A stretch of 64,000 nucleotides of DNA from Gammaproteobacteria bacterium. GTDB taxonomy: Bacteria > Pseudomonadota > Gammaproteobacteria > Ga0077536. Shown here piece by piece: positions 55,981 through 64,000 of this stretch; position 1 is the stretch's first letter, and each line of letters starts with the position of its first letter. The notes under the pieces were generated by a model. It had not been told where the DNA came from, searched no databases, and saw only the letters and a program-made list of their open reading frames with translations. A program made the position numbers and the translations under genes. The DNA is taken from assembly GCA_009692265.1 (NCBI GenBank), contig SHZM01000005.1, positions 1-64,000 of the forward strand, in the 5' to 3' direction.

Positions 55981-56211
55981 TAGAAACGGCAGTTCAACGG
56001 CGCGTGCAGTGTGTTCCGTTGGGTGCAGGGCAAGGTGCGAGGAGGAGGAATAGCCAGCACATCCTCCGAGTTGCAACGCCGCCATGCGCGCAAGGGGACG
56101 CGCTGCGCGAGTCGTAGCGAACCCACCCAAAAGGTGACGCCCATTTGAACGGCAAAATCACTCTTTTTCACGGACTTATGCATGCTCGACAGCGGTCAAC
56201 TGCCGTTTCTA
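55981..56211. repeat. 231-bp segment bounded by 14-bp inverted repeats
   Basis: TAGAAACGGCAGTT at 55981-55994 and its perfect inverse at 56198-56211 bound the segment; the similarity continues weakly outside. The short frame inside (minus strand, ends CTQRNTLHAPLNCRF) is not convincing as a gene. It is probably a small mobile or repeat element, different from the TTAA-ended family next to it. Confidence 0.5.
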
Positions 56212-56295
56212 GGAATATAGCTTTCTCAGGAAATTGCCGGGCCCGGACTCTGCGGTCGCCTCGCGCTGGCTTCTAACCCACGTGTTACCGCAACG

Positions 56296-56441
56296 TTAAG
56301 GGCACCTCTAAAAATTGTCTTTTTGCTCGACTGCGGTGTTGCGACACTTCGTGCGATGCTTATTAACTTACGGTGTTAACTGCGCTTCTCGAAAGTACCG
56401 CGCCTAGCAAAAAAAATCCCAATTTTCAGAGGCACCCTTAA
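56296..56441. repeat. MITE-like TTAA-ended repeat, copy 1
   Basis: A 146-bp element starting TTAAGGGCACCTCTAAAAAT and ending with the near-perfect inverse (CAATTTTCAGAGGCACCCTTAA pattern), about 20-bp terminal inverted repeats with TTAA ends. It is about 80% identical to copy 2 at 59401-59550. Its right end supplies the TAA stop of the VWA gene (56438-56440). No coding capacity. Confidence 0.85.
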
Positions 56442-57622
56442 TGGGATTTTTTTAGCGCCTTCATCGCTCGGTCGAGGCCATCAATGGTTAGCGGGAACAT
56501 GCGATCGGACACCAGCTGCTTAACCATGCCAATCGAGGGTATGTAACTCCAATAATCTTCCGGCTGCGGATTGAGCCATACAGCGTAGGGATACAGCGCA
56601 AGCATTCGCGCCATCCACGTCGCTCCGGATTCCTCGTTCCAATGCTCTATGCTGCCGCCAACGGCCATAATTTCATACGGGCTCATCGTCGCGTCACCGA
56701 CGAACACGACTTTATGGTCCTTGCTGTATGTATTCATTAAACGCTGCGTCGGAAACCTCACGTTGTTGCGCATCTGGTTGTCGCGCCAGACCGTTTCATA
56801 GACAAAATTATGGAAATAGAAATGTTCCAGATGTTTGAATTCAGTCCGTGTCGCGGAGAACAGTTCTTCACACACCTTGACGTGGGGATCCATCGACCCG
56901 CCGACATCGAGGAACAGCAACACCTTGGTGGTATTTCGTCGCTCGGGAACGAGTTTGATATCGAGTAGCCCGGCGCGGCGTGCGGTTGAACGAATCGTAT
57001 CGTCGAGATCTAGTTCCTCTTCTGCGCCTTCGCGCGCGAACCGGCGCAACTTGCGCAGTGCTATTTTGATGTTACGAGTACCAAGCTCGACTTGATCGTC
57101 GAGATTTTGATATTCGCGTCGATCCCAAACCTTGACCGCGCGGCCTTGACGTCCGCCAGCTTGCCCGATTCTGACTCCTTCCGGGTTATAGCCGTTGGCA
57201 CCGAAGGGCGAGGTGCCGCCAGTGCCTATCCACTTATTGCCACCGTGGTGTTCGCGCTTCTGTTCTTCCAGGCGCTGCTTCAAGGTCTCCATCAACTTGT
57301 CCCAGCCACCGAGGCTTTCGATCAGCTTCTTCTCTTCCTCGCTCAGATTAAGTTCTTGTTGCTTGCGTAACCAATCAAGCGGGATCTCGCCCAAAATCTC
57401 TTCAAAGATCGTTTGCTGACCACGGATGTAATCGCCGAAGACTTTATCGAAACGATCAAAGAAGCGCTCGTCCTTGACCAATGTGGCGCGCGCAAGAAAG
57501 TAAAAATCGTCAATGCTAAAGCCCGCGATGCCGGCTTCCAGCGCGCTCATCAACGTCAGATACTCGGTAATGGAGACCGGGACCTGTACCTTGCGCAGGC
57601 GATAGAAAAACTCAGTTAGCAC
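56438..57622 (-). CDS. VWA domain protein (CoxE-like), partner of MoxR
   Basis: A 394-residue protein from a GTG at 57622 (VLTEFFYRLRKVQVPVSITE). An N-terminal helical region is followed by a Gly-rich linker, RKLRRFAREGAEEELDLDDT, then the von Willebrand A domain. The metal site reads VLLFLDVGGSMDPHVKVCEE (DxGxS, as usual in this subfamily), with VVFVGDATMSPYEI later. MoxR/VWA pairs act as chaperone-like activators that load or mature enzymes. It overlaps moxR by 11 bp. Its stop codon is formed by the TTAA repeat end. Confidence 0.9.
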   Translation of the reverse strand: MLTEFFYRLRKVQVPVSITEYLTLMSALEAGIAGFSIDDFYFLARATLVKDERFFDRFDKVFGDYIRGQQTIFEEILGEIPLDWLRKQQELNLSEEEKKLIESLGGWDKLMETLKQRLEEQKREHHGGNKWIGTGGTSPFGANGYNPEGVRIGQAGGRQGRAVKVWDRREYQNLDDQVELGTRNIKIALRKLRRFAREGAEEELDLDDTIRSTARRAGLLDIKLVPERRNTTKVLLFLDVGGSMDPHVKVCEELFSATRTEFKHLEHFYFHNFVYETVWRDNQMRNNVRFPTQRLMNTYSKDHKVVFVGDATMSPYEIMAVGGSIEHWNEESGATWMARMLALYPYAVWLNPQPEDYWSYIPSIGMVKQLVSDRMFPLTIDGLDRAMKALKKSH

Positions 57623-58469
57623 CGCGTCCTCGCGACATGAACACCAGGCGCTCGAACAAGTGCATGTCCTGTTCGTTCTTGAGCAGCGCACCGTATAGTT
57701 TTGGGATTGCCTTGCGTGAATCTTTTTCGCGCAAAGCTTCAGGCGGAATATCTTCCGCGACCAAGAGCTTGATCCAGTCGAGTAGTTCCGAAGTCGACGG
57801 CTTTTTTTTGAGACCCGGTAATTCACGTAACTCGAAAAAGCACTGCATCGCTTCGGTTAATAACCGCTTTTTTATGTCGGGGTAGTGGACATGCACGATT
57901 TGGTTCATCGTTTCTTGATCCGGGAATCTGATGTAGTGGAAGAAGCAGCGTCTCAGAAATGCGTCGGGCAACTCTTTCTCATTGTTGCTGGTAATAATGA
58001 TGATCGGCCGGTGTACCGCTTTAATGGTTTCCTTGGTCTCGTAAACGTAGAACTCCATGCGATCGAGTTCTTGTAATAAATCATTTGGGAACTCTATGTC
58101 GGCTTTGTCTATCTCATCGATCAAGAGTACTGGCTGTACCGGCGCTTCAAACGCCTCCCACAGCTTGCCTTTGAGGATGTAGTTACGGATATCGTGGACC
58201 CGGTTGTCGGCTAGCTGCGAATCACGCAGGCGCGCGACGGCGTCGTATTCGTAAAGCCCGCGCGCGGCCTTAGTAGTCGATTTGATATGCCATTGGATCA
58301 GTTCGCGATCAAGTGCACGGGCGATTTCCTCGGCGAGCATAGTTTTGCCGGTCCCGGGCTCGCCCTTGACCAGCAACGGGCGGGCGAGCGTAATCGCAGC
58401 ATTCACGGCCATCATGAGATCGTCCGTGGCGACGTAAGTTTCGGTACCAGAGAAGCGAGCTATCGACAT
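57612..58469 (-). CDS. MoxR-family AAA+ ATPase
   Basis: A 285-residue AAA+ ATPase. Walker A GEPGTGKT (36-43), Walker B VLLIDEIDKAD, sensor IITSNNEKELPDAFLRRCFF with the arginine finger. An ATG at 58469 (MSIARFSGTETYVATDDLMM) is preferred over an in-frame one at 58505. MoxR ATPases work with VWA proteins, here encoded next to it by overlap, to remodel substrate proteins. The client is not indicated by neighbours. Confidence 0.93.
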   Translation of the reverse strand: MSIARFSGTETYVATDDLMMAVNAAITLARPLLVKGEPGTGKTMLAEEIARALDRELIQWHIKSTTKAARGLYEYDAVARLRDSQLADNRVHDIRNYILKGKLWEAFEAPVQPVLLIDEIDKADIEFPNDLLQELDRMEFYVYETKETIKAVHRPIIIITSNNEKELPDAFLRRCFFHYIRFPDQETMNQIVHVHYPDIKKRLLTEAMQCFFELRELPGLKKKPSTSELLDWIKLLVAEDIPPEALREKDSRKAIPKLYGALLKNEQDMHLFERLVFMSRGRGAN

Positions 58470-58603
58470 GAATAAGTTCCGATTAAGTTGAGTTACGGGC
58501 CGCATTGTAATGCAAGCTCGCGCCGATCAAAGCGCCGGCTGACAGCTTTGGCACGGTTACCGAAATTTTTACCGGAACGAGGTCTACACGAGGAAATCTG
58601 GCT

Positions 58604-59404
58604 ATGACCACCAATTCGCAGCTAGTGATCGCAGTACTCGCGTCGGCGCTTAGCCAGTTGGCACAAGCCGATCGCGCCGTCGGGATCAAGGCATTCGAAA
58701 GCGCTGATTACGGCCAAGCCCTAACCGAATTGCGCCCCGTCGCGATCGCGGGTAATGCGGAAGCCCAATACACCCTGGGGGTCATGTACGCCCAAGGTTG
58801 GGGAGTACTGGCCGATCCTGAACAGGCCTTTGCCTGGTATCAGCGCGCCGCTGTTCAGGACTACGCCAAGGCAGAACATAATCTCGCAGTCATGATCGAA
58901 GGCGGTGAAGTCGCGACCCCCGATCCTGCCGCCGCCCGCCGCTGGTTCGAACGTGCGGCTAACCATGGCAGTGCCAAGGCCGCGCTTGAACTAGGGTTGC
59001 GTTGTTATCGTGGATTTGATGACAGCGGGCCGGACTACGCTCGCGCGCTGGGGTGGTGGGAGCGCGCATTCTCGGCCGGTGAACCCGATGCTGGGTATAA
59101 CCTCGGAATTCTTCATCGCCGCGGCCTAGGGGTCGACAAGGACATCAATTCGGCCACGAGGTGGTGGGAGCGCGCGGCGCGAGCTGGATCTTTAGTGGCC
59201 CAAAACGCCTTGGGAGCAGCGTACCAATCCGCGGCAGGTGTGCCGCTCGAGCCGGTCAAAGCCTACGCGTGGTACCAAGTAGCTGCGCGTGGAGGCCTGC
59301 GGGTAGCGGCGCAAAATGCGACGCTTTTGGAAGCTCAACTAAGTCCCGAACAGCTCGCGCACGCGCGTGACCTTTCCACCGAATTGATGACTCAATCGCC
59401 TTAA
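58604..59404 (+). CDS. Exported Sel1-repeat protein
   Basis: A 266-residue periplasmic protein with a signal peptide (LVIAVLASALSQLAQA) and about five Sel1 repeats: GNAEAQYTLGVMYAQGWGV, AKAEHNLAVMIEGGEV, AALELGLRCYRGFDD, AGYNLGILHRRGLGVDKD and AQNALGAAYQSAAGVPLEPV, then a Gly-Leu capping segment. It is divergent from moxR and resembles the protein at 42943-44019. Its stop TAA is made by the end of repeat copy 2. Confidence 0.88.
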   Translation: MTTNSQLVIAVLASALSQLAQADRAVGIKAFESADYGQALTELRPVAIAGNAEAQYTLGVMYAQGWGVLADPEQAFAWYQRAAVQDYAKAEHNLAVMIEGGEVATPDPAAARRWFERAANHGSAKAALELGLRCYRGFDDSGPDYARALGWWERAFSAGEPDAGYNLGILHRRGLGVDKDINSATRWWERAARAGSLVAQNALGAAYQSAAGVPLEPVKAYAWYQVAARGGLRVAAQNATLLEAQLSPEQLAHARDLSTELMTQSP

Positions 59405-59550
59405 GGGCAACTCAAAAATTGTCTTTTTGCCCGATTGCGGCGCTGCGGCACTTCCTTCGATGCTCATTAACTTGCCGTGTTAACTGTGCTTTTCGGAAGT
59501 ACCGCGCCTTGCACTCAAAAAAAAACCTAATTTTTTAGGGGTGCCCTTAA
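59401..59550. repeat. MITE-like TTAA-ended repeat, copy 2
   Basis: A 150-bp element starting TTAAGGGCAACTCAAAAATT and ending TTTAGGGGTGCCCTTAA, with inverted ends like copy 1 and about 80% overall identity to it (shared core around CATTAACTT and GTGTTAACT). Same orientation as copy 1. The first four bases overlap the TAA stop of the Sel1 gene. Confidence 0.85.
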
Positions 59551-59572
59551 CCGGAAACGGCCGTTTCTCGGT

Positions 59573-59698
59573 TTAAAACTCGTCAGCGAGTTTGTCGGCG
59601 ATTTCGTCGAGAAGCGTCAAGGTAGTATTGTCCGCGGCCTGTCGGGCCGCCGTGGCGCGCTGTCGAATGCGTGCCGTGTGTTCGAGCATGCGACTCAT
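59573..59698 (-). CDS. 41-residue protein coupled to the coiled-coil gene
   Basis: An ATG at 59696-59698 overlaps the TAA of the upstream gene (TAATG). It reads MSRMLEHTARIRQRATAARQ, then ADNTTLTLLDEIADKLADEF, an alpha-helical amphipathic peptide. The overlap implies translation by reinitiation. Small but convincing because of coupling and composition; function unknown. Confidence 0.55.
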   Translation of the reverse strand: MSRMLEHTARIRQRATAARQAADNTTLTLLDEIADKLADEF

Positions 59699-60405
59699 TA
59701 ATCTTTGCGTTGCGCCGTTGAATTCTGCATTCGATCTTGTTCTTCAACCCATTCTTCAAGCTCTTTCTTAAGCAGCGAACTCAGTCCGCTTCCGGGCTGC
59801 TGCGCGCGTTGCAGCTGCTCCGCGTTTTCGCGCTGTCGCGATTCGGCGACTGAGGTCGCGGCTACCGCATCGACAAGTTTAGACGCGGCCGCCGAAGCGT
59901 GGGCCTCTAGCAGTTCAATCTCCGCGCGTAAGTTTTGTTCCGTCTGTTGGCTGGAAGATTGACGCAAACGTGCGGCCGAAAGTTCTTGCTCTGCGACTAC
60001 GCGGGCGGCTTCGGCGGCTTCCTTATCGCGCACCGCGTTAAGCATTTCGAGCCTGAGTCGCTCGGCATCCGCCGCAATGCGAGTTCGCTCCGCCGTCAGC
60101 TTCTGGGCCATTTCAAACGCTTGACGCGCTTGCGTGGCGCGATACTCCGCAATGATTGTCTGCGCTTCTTCAGCCGCCGCCGCCTTGGCTGCCTCGGCCG
60201 CTACTTGATCCTGGCGTGCCTGGGCGATTTCGGCTGCTGATTTGGCGAATTCAGCTTCAAAGCGTTGTCGCTCACGCGCCAATTCGCCCTTCAAAGTTTC
60301 GCGGAGTTGGGCTTCTTGCGCGGCGAGCTTGGTTGCTTGGGCAGCCTCGCGTGCGCGGGCTGTTTGCTCTAAGAGTTCAGCGGCGGCGAGCCGGTTGCGA
60401 CTCAT
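59698..60405 (-). CDS. Alanine/glutamate-rich coiled-coil protein
   Basis: A 235-residue protein almost entirely coiled coil (EAAQATKLAAQEAQLRETLK, ERQRFEAEFAKSAAEIAQAR), ending with LSSLLKKELEEWVEEQDRMQ. It lies 21 bp after the cNMP/rhodanese gene, whose C-terminal part is also a coiled coil of the same flavour. Probably they interact. No named family. Confidence 0.75.
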   Translation of the reverse strand: MSRNRLAAAELLEQTARAREAAQATKLAAQEAQLRETLKGELARERQRFEAEFAKSAAEIAQARQDQVAAEAAKAAAAEEAQTIIAEYRATQARQAFEMAQKLTAERTRIAADAERLRLEMLNAVRDKEAAEAARVVAEQELSAARLRQSSSQQTEQNLRAEIELLEAHASAAASKLVDAVAATSVAESRQRENAEQLQRAQQPGSGLSSLLKKELEEWVEEQDRMQNSTAQRKD

Positions 60406-60426
60406 CGTGGATTCGAGTTCTATTTT

Positions 60427-62014
60427 TTACCAGGTGTCATTCAGAGACCGACGTTCCTGCTGGGTCGCCACTTGGAGCTGTTCGAGCTGTTGTGCCTGTT
60501 GTCGAAAAACCTCTTCAAGCCGAGCTTCTTTTTCCTGTAACGCGCGTTCGATTCGTTCCTGCGCGAGCTGGGCGCGAGCAGCGTGCTCTTTGCGTTGCCG
60601 CGCCGCTTCGGCCGATGCCGCGGCATGCTGCTGTTCGAGTAAGTTTTTTAAACGTCCCGCTTCTTCCAGCTTCGCACGAACCGCAGCCTCTTCTTGCTGG
60701 ATGCGAGCTCGCTCATTTCCAACCTGCTGGGCGACATACTCCGCCGCTTCGCGTTTGGCCGCTTCTGCTTCCGCAACCAATTGCTGTGCATGCGCGATTT
60801 GAATGTGAGCCCGTTCAACTTCTGCGGCCAGCGACTGGGCATGGACTTCGGCATCAACCATCGCTTCCCTACGCTGCGCGCTAGTGGCTTGGGCGGGGAC
60901 TTCGGCCGGGGCAGGTGAAACAGCAGCTGTAGGCGCCGCTATCGGCGGAATTGGATGAGTGAGTAACTCATCGATCGCGCTGGTCGCAACAAAGCAGATG
61001 TCATAGCCTTCCTGGGTAAGGAGGAAGGCGGCTGCCGAGCTGCGCCCACCAGTATCGCAATACGCCACATAACTTATTTCGGGAGCCAGTTCTTTAAAGC
61101 GAGTTCGCAGGAAACTGAGTGGCAAATTAAAGCTTCGCGATAATCCGTTGGCCGCATGCTCTTCCGGGAAACGTACATCCAGCCAGCGCGCGCCGGCGTC
61201 TACCATTTCTCGCGCTTTAGCCAGACTGACGCTCCGTAGCAGTGGCTCCCTGATCAATTCGATGAAATGCTCTTGCGTTAGCCGTCCCAGCACGCCGTCG
61301 GACAACATGCGCACCGTTGCATTTCGTTTTGTATTAGAGACGAGCGCTTCTTCGCCAAAGGTGTCGCCAGGCCCCAGTTCGGCGAGCTTGATTTGCTTGC
61401 CCGCACGCGTTGCGCGGCAAACTTCACACCTGCCGGTTTGCACGATGTAGTAATAATCACCGACGTTGCCTTGTTGGATAACGACTTCGCCAGCGGTGAC
61501 GTTGATAGCTTCCAAGGTATCGATCAACCGTTGGATATTCGCCGGTGGGATGCGCGCAAAGAGTTCGGATTGCAGCATGCTGGTGAGCCAGTCTAGCGCG
61601 CCAGTGGATTCAAACTCTTCGACTTCGATTGAAGACGGCTTTTCTTCTACCTCTTCGTTCGCAAGGCTTAGAAACTTATCGAGTAGGCGGCGATCGATCC
61701 GTAAAACCTGAGCGCTGCCAAGCGCCTTGGCCGACATTTGGCGCGGCTGGAGTTGCGCTAATGGCTGAAACGACGCAGCGTCTCCACCCACCATCCTTTT
61801 TATGAGTTGGTCGCCGGACCACATCTCAAGTTCGCCAGACAGCAGATAATGCGAATAATTATCTCGATCGCCCTGCCGGAAGATGTGGTCCTTCTTTGTT
61901 AAAACTTAGAATTTCGGCCGTCGCCAACAGTTGTTCCTGTTGTTTCGGCTGCAAATTATTGATGGGCACCAACAGGCCCAGACGTTCATGGAAAGTATTT
62001 TGTTCCGAAGGCAT
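60427..62014 (-). pseudogene. Dual cNMP-binding, rhodanese, coiled-coil protein with a one-base frameshift
   Basis: Starts at an ATG at 62014 (MPSEQNTFHERLGLLVPIN) and runs to NKEGP before leaving frame near 61895. An extra G in AACAAAGAAGG breaks it; removing it gives KKDHIFRQGDRDNYSHYLLS, continuing into the 61824-60427 frame. Domains: first degenerate cNMP-binding region (to about 130), second cNMP-binding region (QGNVGDYYYIVQTGRCEV, GPGDTFGEEALVSNTKRNAT), rhodanese-like domain (GARWLDVRFPEEHAANG, YCDTGGRSSAAAFLLTQEGY with the active cysteine), then a proline linker and a long coiled coil. It is a paralogue of the gene at 62818. Whether the lesion is real is open. Confidence 0.8.
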
Positions 62015-62045
62015 AACACGTCCGTGACTTGCTTTATGCGTTGCC

Positions 62046-62285
62046 TCAAGCGTCTAAGTCGGGAATGAGGGCGCTTTTGAGTTTGGCAATTTGATCCTTG
62101 AGCTGCAGCTTGCGCTTTTTTAAACGCTTAATCAGTAATTCATCGACGCGTGGTGATTCGGTTAAACGAGCCACAATTTCGTCCAGGTCGCGATGTTCGA
62201 CTTGGAGTTCGAACAGACGGCGTTCAACTGATTTACGATCTGTGTTCGACAAGCCGAACTCCAAGCTGCAAGCGTACCGTTTCAT
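62046..62285 (-). CDS. YdcH family protein (DUF465)
   Basis: A 79-residue DUF465/YdcH protein: VERRLFELQVEHRDLDEIVA and LLIKRLKKRKLQLKDQIAKL match the family nearly throughout. A small helical hairpin protein of unknown function, widespread in proteobacteria. It precedes the cNMP/rhodanese gene by 31 bp on the same strand. Confidence 0.9.
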   Translation of the reverse strand: MKRYACSLEFGLSNTDRKSVERRLFELQVEHRDLDEIVARLTESPRVDELLIKRLKKRKLQLKDQIAKLKSALIPDLDA

Positions 62286-62689
62286 GCAAAATTCTACAGC
62301 TAATCGAATAAAAAAACGGAACTTTTTGTCGGTCCATCGACGAGGATGCAGGGCCGCCAGCGCTATGGCGTGGCGCCGGTAGGTGTAACCCTATGGTAGG
62401 CCGATGACGAGTCAACGTTCCCTCCGCCCTGCCGATTCCGGGACCGTTCACAATACGGGTTTGCCGGGAGCGGTCGCTACACCCAATAGAGCGCCGCCAG
62501 CGGTGTTACTGGAGCCGGTCGTGAGCGTATACTCGGCACAAATATACGAAGATAAATGCCCACATCACGAGATCTCGACACCGCGGCGGCGGCACTGGTG
62601 AGAGATTTGTCGGGGATGGCCGCGCTCGGGATAATGGCCGAGCGCCCGATTGGTGGATCTCGTGTGGGTCGCTGCGTTGGTGAACCGAA
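62286..62689. other. Intergenic region between divergent genes
   Basis: About 400 bp that should contain promoters for the ydcH/cNMP operon and the rightward paralogue. Short frames are present but none is convincing. No inverted repeat was recognised. Confidence 0.45.
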
Positions 62690-62821
62690 ATGCGTGATCG
62701 CTATCACAAAGGCCTACCTACTCTCCTGCAGCAGCCGCCACGGGTTGCTTTAATTCGAACTGACGACAACCAACTAGCTCATTTGCAACCGAGTCAAAGC
62801 TTGCGTTTTCTCCAATTATGA
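62690..62821 (+). CDS. Possible 43-residue upstream ORF coupled to the cNMP/rhodanese paralogue
   Basis: An ATG at 62690 behind GGTGA opens 43 codons (MRDRYHKGLPTLLQQPPRVA, then LIRTDDNQLAHLQPSQSLRF LQL in reduced form) whose TGA overlaps the next ATG as ATGA at 62818-62821. The overlap suggests translational coupling; the following gene has no good Shine-Dalgarno of its own. Could be a leader ORF or chance. Confidence 0.35.
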   Translation: MRDRYHKGLPTLLQQPPRVALIRTDDNQLAHLQPSQSLRFLQL

Positions 62822-64000
62822 CAGCGTCGCAGGCGATCGAAGAAAAATTCTCATCCGTTCTACGGATGCTTGTACCCATCAATGGGTTGTCGGTGCCACG
62901 GCGTCAACAGCTCTTCGCGCAGGCCGAAGTGCTCGGGATTCGACGCGGCAGCTATGTGTTTCATGAAGGCGACAAGGACAGCTACGCTTTCTTTCTGCTT
63001 GAGGGCAGCTTGGAATTGTTTGCAGGACAGCAGCTCGTGAAGCGCATAGCCGGAGGCAGTGTAGATGCGATTCATCCGCTCGCGCAGTTGCAACCGCGTC
63101 AGCTGTCGGCACGCGCATTGAGCGAGGCGCACGTCTTGCGGGTGAGCCGAGATTTACTCGATAAGCTCCTGGCGCTCGACGGAACTGGTGATTCCAATTA
63201 CCTCAAGATTGACGAAACCGACCCCGACGAGGAAAGCGATTGGATGACTCGGATGCTTCAGTCCGAACTATTCAGCCGTGTGCCAGCCGCGAACATTCAA
63301 CGGATATTCGTAAGCCTCGAATCCGTTGAGTACAAAGCCAGCGACGTCGTAGTGCGGCAAGGGGGCCCAGGGGATTTCTACTACGTGATTCAAACAGGTC
63401 GCTGCCAAGTCAGCCGTCAGATCCCCAACGGCAAAGTGCCCATCAAACTTGCTGAATTGGGACCTGGTGACACTTTCGGCGAAGAAGCCCTCGTGGCGGA
63501 AGCGACTCGCAATGCGACCGTGACCATGCTCACCGGCGGGACCCTGATGCGCCTGACGAAGGAGGACTTCGTCGAGTTAATCAAGAAACCTCTATTGAAC
63601 GAAATTAGCCACCGTGAAGCGCAGCACCTTGTCGCTAATCAAGGTGCAGTGTGGCTCGACGTCAGATTTCCGGAAGAACACCGCGCGGGGAGTATCGAAG
63701 CGAGCCTGAATCTTCCCCTCAATACCTTACGGATGCACGCCGAACGACTCGATCGCGATAAAATGTACATCGTCTGCTGCGACACCGGATCTCGCAGCTC
63801 AGTAGGCGCTTTCCTACTTTCGGAACGTGGTTTCGATGTCTTCTATCTAAGCGGCGGCATGGTACGGCACGGCTTACTGACGCCCGCGCTTGACGAGATA
63901 AACGATAGTTTTCCCGCAAAACCGCGACCACCCGTGCGGCAAGGCTCGACCGGCGTGAGTGTGACGCCAGTGAGCGCCGTGGTCCCTTCGTCGCAGAAGT
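62818..64000 (+). CDS. Dual cNMP-binding and rhodanese domain protein (runs off right edge)
   Basis: 394 codons are visible, open to the window end. It is a paralogue of the gene at 60427-62014 with the same order: first cNMP-binding region (GIRRGSYVFHEGDKDSYAFF), conserved middle HPLAQLQPRQLSARALSEAH, second cNMP-binding region (QGGPGDFYYVIQTGRCQVSR, ELGPGDTFGEEALVAEATRN), rhodanese domain (AVWLDVRFPEEHRAGSIEAS, VCCDTGSRSSVGAFLLSERG) with the active cysteine in VCCDTGSR. The Pro/Ser/Val-rich end suggests a linker beginning. It may sense a cyclic nucleotide and handle sulfur; the link is inference. Confidence 0.88.
   Translation, partial: MTASQAIEEKFSSVLRMLVPINGLSVPRRQQLFAQAEVLGIRRGSYVFHEGDKDSYAFFLLEGSLELFAGQQLVKRIAGGSVDAIHPLAQLQPRQLSARALSEAHVLRVSRDLLDKLLALDGTGDSNYLKIDETDPDEESDWMTRMLQSELFSRVPAANIQRIFVSLESVEYKASDVVVRQGGPGDFYYVIQTGRCQVSRQIPNGKVPIKLAELGPGDTFGEEALVAEATRNATVTMLTGGTLMRLTKEDFVELIKKPLLNEISHREAQHLVANQGAVWLDVRFPEEHRAGSIEASLNLPLNTLRMHAERLDRDKMYIVCCDTGSRSSVGAFLLSERGFDVFYLSGGMVRHGLLTPALDEINDSFPAKPRPPVRQGSTGVSVTPVSAVVPSSQK

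What the first reader, a model, noticed from the sequence alone, without database searches (positions are those of the whole stretch)
60427..64000. Divergent paralogues fusing two cNMP-binding domains to rhodanese, with small coupled partners
Seen: two genes facing away from each other share an order (cNMP-like, cNMP-like, rhodanese), with near-identical stretches such as the FARIPPANIQR/FSRVPAANIQR and ELGPGDTFGEEALV blocks. One adds a long coiled coil and is followed by a coiled-coil gene and a 41-residue coupled gene. The rhodanese cysteine is kept in both. Known: cNMP and rhodanese domains are common separately, and cNMP-rhodanese fusions occur, but I know of no described function for a doubled, divergent pair with these partners. 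Inference: a sensory module linking a nucleotide signal to persulfide chemistry.
Basis: partly seen in the sequence, partly recalled or inferred. Interest (0 to 1): 0.7.

Follow-up and report, generated by a model that had tools for sequence, protein, structure and literature searches.

The report
Paired cyclic-nucleotide/rhodanese coiled-coil sensor proteins
Two back-to-back bacterial genes encode long rod-shaped proteins whose heads combine a cyclic-nucleotide receptor with a sulfur-transfer (rhodanese) domain; the head recurs across many gammaproteobacterial families, often beside the enzymes that make cyclic nucleotides, and I found no paper describing it, although one of the two genes looks broken in this genome.

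Summary
Both genes encode the same head: a degenerate cNMP domain, an intact cNMP domain and a rhodanese. Both also have long helical tails; the + gene runs past the window to 1183 aa. The "small coupled partners" (235 and 41 aa) are not separate genes. They, the 465-aa ORF and an unnoticed piece at 62014-61859 are fragments of one ~810-aa gene, broken by a +1 insertion (~61,894), an in-frame TAA (60429-60427) and a further frame break (59700). In G005, G013 and G030 the same gene is one ORF of 790-802 aa. The real small neighbour is DUF465 (62285-62046).

The divergent pair is ancient: its members form separate supported clades and stay adjacent in ten genomes of this family. The head occurs in 67 of 140 sampled genomes of the class and co-occurs with class III cyclases (61/67 versus 31/73, p=5e-10). 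Compact ~350-aa versions lie near CHASE2-cyclase, CHASE2-kinase, PP2C and FHA genes. Other versions end in an FGE-sulfatase domain. Best reading: cyclic-nucleotide receptors controlling a sulfurtransferase-type rhodanese on a rod. Ligand and output are untested; I found no published description.

The parts
62818..64000 (+). + member of the pair: cNBD1 (degenerate), cNBD2, rhodanese, start of coiled-coil tail; continues beyond the window to contig position 66369 (1183 aa in all)
   Evidence: ORF; Pfam; structure
62887..63180 (+). cNBD1 of the + member (about residues 24-121); phosphate-cassette Arg kept, ribose-binding Glu missing
63241..63594 (+). cNBD2 of the + member (about residues 142-259) with invariant FGEE...R231-N-A cassette
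63613..63864 (+). Rhodanese domain of the + member (residues 266-349), active-site loop C321-D-T-G-S-R
59573..62014 (-). Minus member of the pair: one ancestral gene of about 810 aa, broken here into four pieces
   Evidence: continuous match to the intact 790-802 aa orthologues
61859..62014 (-). Piece 1 of the minus gene: its true N-terminus (start of cNBD1), 71% identical to G005 residues 1-41
61886..61900 (-). Frameshift: +1 base relative to the G005 orthologue, at about 61,894
60427..61824 (-). Piece 2 of the minus gene (465-aa ORF): rest of cNBD1, cNBD2 (61503-61249), rhodanese (61221-60988), start of tail
60427..60429 (-). In-frame TAA inside the tail; orthologues read through here (Gln in G005)
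59698..60405 (-). Piece 3 of the minus gene (235-aa ORF, same frame as piece 2): helical tail
59573..59698 (-). Piece 4 of the minus gene (41-aa ORF, other frame, TAATG overlap): conserved C-terminal cap
62046..62285 (-). DUF465 (PF04325) gene, co-directional with and just upstream of the minus member; keeps this place in relatives

Best explanation
The two genes are an ancient pair of paralogous cyclic-nucleotide receptor proteins. In each, a tandem cNMP-binding head binds cAMP or cGMP in its second domain and is coupled to a rhodanese domain of the sulfurtransferase type. The head sits on a long helical rod that ends in a conserved C-terminal cap. Cyclic nucleotide made by class III cyclases most likely changes the head's shape and so controls persulfide transfer, or persulfide-dependent docking, by the rhodanese. 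The rods hold heads together, probably as dimers and possibly as +/minus heterodimers, and the cap fixes them to a partner. Shown here: domains, fold, conserved cassette and loop, pairing and its age, cap conservation, linkage and co-occurrence with cyclases. Inferred: ligand, activity, dimer partner and direction of control. In this genome the minus member is broken (recent pseudogene or assembly fault), so probably only the + member is made whole.
For: PF00027 and PF00581 in both genes. Head fold predicted with pLDDT above 90 in most blocks; nearest solved structures are PKG/PKA tandem cNMP domains and, by sequence, the rhodanese of CoA-persulfide/disulfide reductases. Cassette F-G-E-E and Arg231 invariant in 36/36; rhodanese Cys 35/36 and Arg 34/36. 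+ and minus clades each supported, 97/95 and 100/99. Pair adjacent in ten family genomes. Tail helical over 416-1180; cap conserved at E down to 1e-33. Compact members clustered with CHASE2-cyclase, CHASE2-kinase, PP2C and FHA genes, and 17 bp from a CHASE2-cyclase in G144. Head co-occurs with class III cyclases, 61/67 versus 31/73. This genome has 11-12 cyclase matches.
Against: No binding or activity data. The pair itself is not beside a cyclase; that linkage belongs to the compact members. cNBD1 lacks the ribose Glu. The co-occurrence test does not control for genome size. Six head-bearing genomes lack a PF00211 match at the threshold used. Dimerisation was not modelled. The full-length model is of low confidence.
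Confidence: 0.5

Rival explanations
1. The rhodanese domain is not a working sulfurtransferase but a docking or redox-sensing domain, and the proteins are cNMP-controlled scaffolds that organise a structure (for example at the envelope) through their long rods.
For: Very long helical tails of varying length with a conserved cap. Many single long members lie in the class GN sortase locus. Some relatives carry an FGE-sulfatase domain at the end of the rod.
Against: The Cys, Gly and Arg of the rhodanese loop are kept in 33-35 of 36 members, which pure docking would not require; the compact form has no rod at all.
Confidence: 0.3
2. The nucleotide sensor is vestigial or reads something else (another nucleotide, or none), so the pair is not a cAMP/cGMP receptor.
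For: cNBD1 is degenerate; the residue after the cassette Arg is Asn, not the Ala or Thr familiar from PKA and PKG (with family knowledge); PKA-like proteins that do not bind cAMP are known and are among the structural matches.
Against: Invariant cassette Glu and Arg in cNBD2 over 36 members; linkage and co-occurrence with class III cyclases.
Confidence: 0.2
3. On the broken minus gene: the three breaks are assembly or consensus faults and the gene is intact in the living organism.
For: No relaxed constraint: lineage-specific changes are 34 versus 29 (head) and 48 versus 48 (tail) against G005. Drafts of relatives also show breaks in this family.
Against: Three breaks fall within about 2.4 kb, while the neighbouring conserved genes compared (VWA, MoxR, + member, YajQ, M16 peptidase) align in single frames. 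One break is a stop codon in frame, not an indel. The minus member is lost outright in G001 of the same genus.
Confidence: 0.4
4. On the fragments: the 235-aa and 41-aa ORFs are real, translationally coupled partner proteins that arose by splitting of the tail.
For: TAATG overlap at 59700-59696; one other member (L096) has a single stop in its tail, leaving a cap-bearing piece downstream.
Against: A third break lies inside cNBD1, which splitting of the tail does not explain; intact orthologues in G005, G013 and G030 are single ORFs.
Confidence: 0.1

Closest known systems
PKA regulatory subunit / PKG tandem cyclic-nucleotide-binding domains
   Same: Two successive cNMP domains with the canonical cassette in one of them; best structural and sequence matches
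   Different: No kinase or kinase-inhibiting part; cNBD1 degenerate; followed by a rhodanese and a rod
Rhodanese domain of CoA-persulfide / CoA-disulfide reductases; GlpE and PspE single-domain rhodaneses
   Same: Rhodanese fold and catalytic loop; sequence match E about 1e-14 to the reductase domain
   Different: No reductase; rhodanese sits behind a cyclic-nucleotide receptor; NCBIfam GlpE/PspE models score far below cut-off
Family 2B encapsulin (cNMP domain in the shell protein; often two paralogues per operon; PMC8346489)
   Same: Bacterial cNMP-containing proteins that come in paralogous pairs; weak cNMP-domain match
   Different: No HK97-fold shell domain here; NCBIfam encap_f2b scores 32 bits against a cut-off of 400
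cNMP-cNMP-rhodanese-coiled coil-FGE-sulfatase proteins of other gammaproteobacterial families (e.g. L149, L151, L159; found here)
   Same: Homologous head and long helical middle
   Different: End in an FGE-sulfatase domain, where the pair members end in a short helical cap

Membership tests
Ligand-competent cyclic-nucleotide-binding domain (PF00027) | Phosphate-binding cassette with Gly-Glu and Arg (cNBD2) | tested here: met
   F220-G221-E222-E223 and R231 invariant in 36/36
Ligand-competent cyclic-nucleotide-binding domain (PF00027) | The same cassette in cNBD1 | tested here: not met
   Arg94 35/36, but the place of the Glu holds R, K, V, F and others
Ligand-competent cyclic-nucleotide-binding domain (PF00027) | Measured cAMP or cGMP binding | not testable with these tools
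   needs purified protein
Rhodanese, sulfurtransferase type | Catalytic Cys in a six-residue C-x4-R loop | tested here: met
   CDTGxR; Cys 35/36, Arg 34/36; PF00581 above cut-off
Rhodanese, sulfurtransferase type | Sulfur transfer activity | not testable with these tools
   needs an assay
CRP/FNR transcription factor | C-terminal helix-turn-helix after the cNMP domain | tested here: not met
   No HTH family match; rhodanese and helical rod follow instead
Family 2B encapsulin | HK97-fold shell domain | tested here: not met
   Match limited to the cNMP domain and far below cut-off; no shell domain in Pfam
Conserved divergent gene pair | Both members adjacent and divergent in several genomes, with separate clades | tested here: met
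   ten genomes of the family; clades 100/99 and 97/95

The most novel reading that the evidence does not exclude
An undescribed second-messenger branch in Gammaproteobacteria: class III (CHASE2-type) cyclases signal through a widespread family of cNMP-rhodanese receptors, so that cyclic nucleotide gates protein persulfidation or sulfur delivery; the paired long members form heteromeric cytoplasmic rods of the order of 100 nm that carry such heads.
Probability: 0.2. Interest if true: 0.8.

Novelty: new variant of a known kind. Interest (0 to 1): 0.52.

Why it matters
Outside transcription factors of the CRP type, few bacterial effectors of cAMP/cGMP are known (general knowledge). Here is a receptor family present in about half of the sampled genomes of its class, linked in its compact form by gene order to cyclase, kinase, phosphatase and FHA genes, with an unexpected sulfur-chemistry domain as its constant companion. 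The compact ~350-aa member makes the question 'does a cyclic nucleotide control sulfur transfer?' directly testable with one purified protein.

Tried and rejected
Separate small partner genes: rejected, they are fragments of the minus gene. Old, relaxed pseudogene: not supported, since lineage-specific changes are balanced, so the breaks are recent or technical. Recent duplication of the pair: rejected by the tree (the quick tree agrees for the minus clade). Chance similarity of the two heads: excluded (E=2e-100). A known RNA element near the pair: no Rfam match in 56000-64000. An existing NCBIfam name for the head: none above cut-off. Literature searches for cNMP-rhodanese proteins gave no description; the library is open-licence papers only. 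Encapsulin 2B and CRP membership: not met. Full-length AlphaFold of the + protein: tail helical but low confidence, tells nothing on oligomer state.

Full report
Setting. The window is positions 1-64000 of an 82-kb contig in a 3.4-Mb, 118-contig draft genome. Named relatives of the pair are metagenome-assembled Gammaproteobacteria or Pseudomonadota; one carries a Klebsiella title but is also a metagenome bin.

What is there. On the + strand, 62818 begins an ORF that the window cuts; taken from the contig it is 1183 aa. On the minus strand, four pieces belong to one gene. A tblastn match of the 802-aa G005 orthologue (residues 38-761, 58% identity) runs from about 61902 to 59701 straight through a TAA at 60429-60427. 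Its first 41 residues match another frame ending near 61892 (71% identity), and its last residues match the 41-aa ORF in that other frame (E=2e-8). The first break is one extra base near 61,894 (31 nt where G005 has 30; sequences).

Broken how? The broken gene shows no excess of lineage-specific changes against its G005 orthologue (34 versus 29 in the head, 48 versus 48 in the tail). The neighbouring conserved genes compared align in single frames. I read this as a recent pseudogene or a local assembly fault and cannot decide between them. In the same genus, G005 keeps both members and G001 has lost the minus member while keeping DUF465.

Anatomy. The head is predicted with confidence as cNBD1, cNBD2, rhodanese (block pLDDT mostly above 90). 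It resembles PKG/PKA tandem cNMP domains, and its rhodanese matches that of CoA-persulfide/disulfide reductases. In cNBD2 the cassette F-G-E-E...R is invariant in 36 homologues; in cNBD1 the Arg is kept but not the Glu; the rhodanese loop C-D-T-G-x-R-S is kept in nearly all. The residue after the cassette Arg is Asn, neither the Ala familiar from PKA nor the Thr familiar from PKG, so the ligand cannot be read from the sequence (family knowledge). The tail of the + protein is predicted helical from 416 to 1180 and holds under 1% each of Gly and Pro. Its length varies from about 490 to 980 residues among orthologues, while the last ~95 residues are conserved in + members, minus members and single long members.

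Evolution. + and minus members form separate clades (97/95 and 100/99) with largely the same species in each, so the duplication predates the family's radiation. Ten genomes of the family, this one included, hold them side by side and divergent, with DUF465 just upstream of the minus member. A divergent pair also occurs in a further family (G139 = L062/L160), with DUF465 beside one member, and a same-strand pair flanks DUF465 in G152 (L162). The DUF465-linked members of L062 and L071 join the minus clade (97% SH-aLRT in a quick tree).

Wider family and context. The head is found in 67 of 140 genomes drawn evenly over the class, nearly all of different families. Of those 67, 61 have a class III cyclase domain, against 31 of the 73 without the head (Fisher p=5e-10; genome size not controlled). 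About twenty compact loci share a cluster: SLT/LysM protein, head, GAF-HD protein, CHASE2-kinase, PP2C, FHA, CHASE2-cyclase. In G144, a single-contig genome, the compact head and a CHASE2-cyclase converge 17 bp apart. Many single long members sit in the class GN (proteobacterial dedicated) sortase locus, often next to Fae. In other families the head continues through a long coiled coil into an FGE-sulfatase domain (E about 1e-59). This genome has 11-12 class III cyclase matches.

Mechanism. Shown: receptor-type cassette, catalytic-type rhodanese loop, helical rod, cap, pairing, and cyclase linkage of the compact form. Inferred: cyclic nucleotide binding in cNBD2 changes the head and so controls sulfur transfer or docking by the rhodanese; rods bring heads together, perhaps as +/minus heterodimers; the cap anchors them. 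I found no paper describing this combination. The closest published parallel I read is the cNMP-containing Family 2B encapsulin, which also often comes as two paralogues (PMC8346489).

Verdict. A real, conserved and apparently undescribed receptor family, here in a paired form. New variant of a known kind; interest 0.52.

Noticed in passing
L058 (G000:C88), L040 (G002:C2), L049 (G011), L050 (G014), window ~61,894: Five members of the family have a stop or frameshift inside cNBD1, each at a different place, while cNBD2 and rhodanese stay open in most. It may be draft error, or cNBD1 may be dispensable.
   Followed up: partly
L149, L150, L151, L152, L156, L158, L159: Proteins of 1322-1984 aa that join the cNMP-cNMP-rhodanese head through a long coiled coil to a C-terminal FGE-sulfatase domain (Pfam run on L149, L151 and L159; the others share the same C-terminal motif).
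   Followed up: partly
L069, L076, L079-L082, L086, L088-L090, L092, L094, L096, L108: Single long members lie in the proteobacterial dedicated (class GN) sortase locus, many with a formaldehyde-activating-enzyme (Fae) homologue immediately downstream. Why Fae is there is unexplained.
   Followed up: no
L099, L104 and about 18 similar loci: A conserved signalling cluster of CHASE2-kinase, PP2C, FHA, CHASE2-cyclase and GAF-HD genes with the compact head gene.
   Followed up: partly
window 62046-62285: DUF465 gene that stays next to the minus-type member across families; a small helical protein and a better candidate partner than the 41-aa ORF.
   Followed up: partly
G000 (own genome): 11-12 class III adenylate/guanylate cyclase matches in 3.4 Mb, a rich cyclic-nucleotide signalling set.
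   Followed up: no
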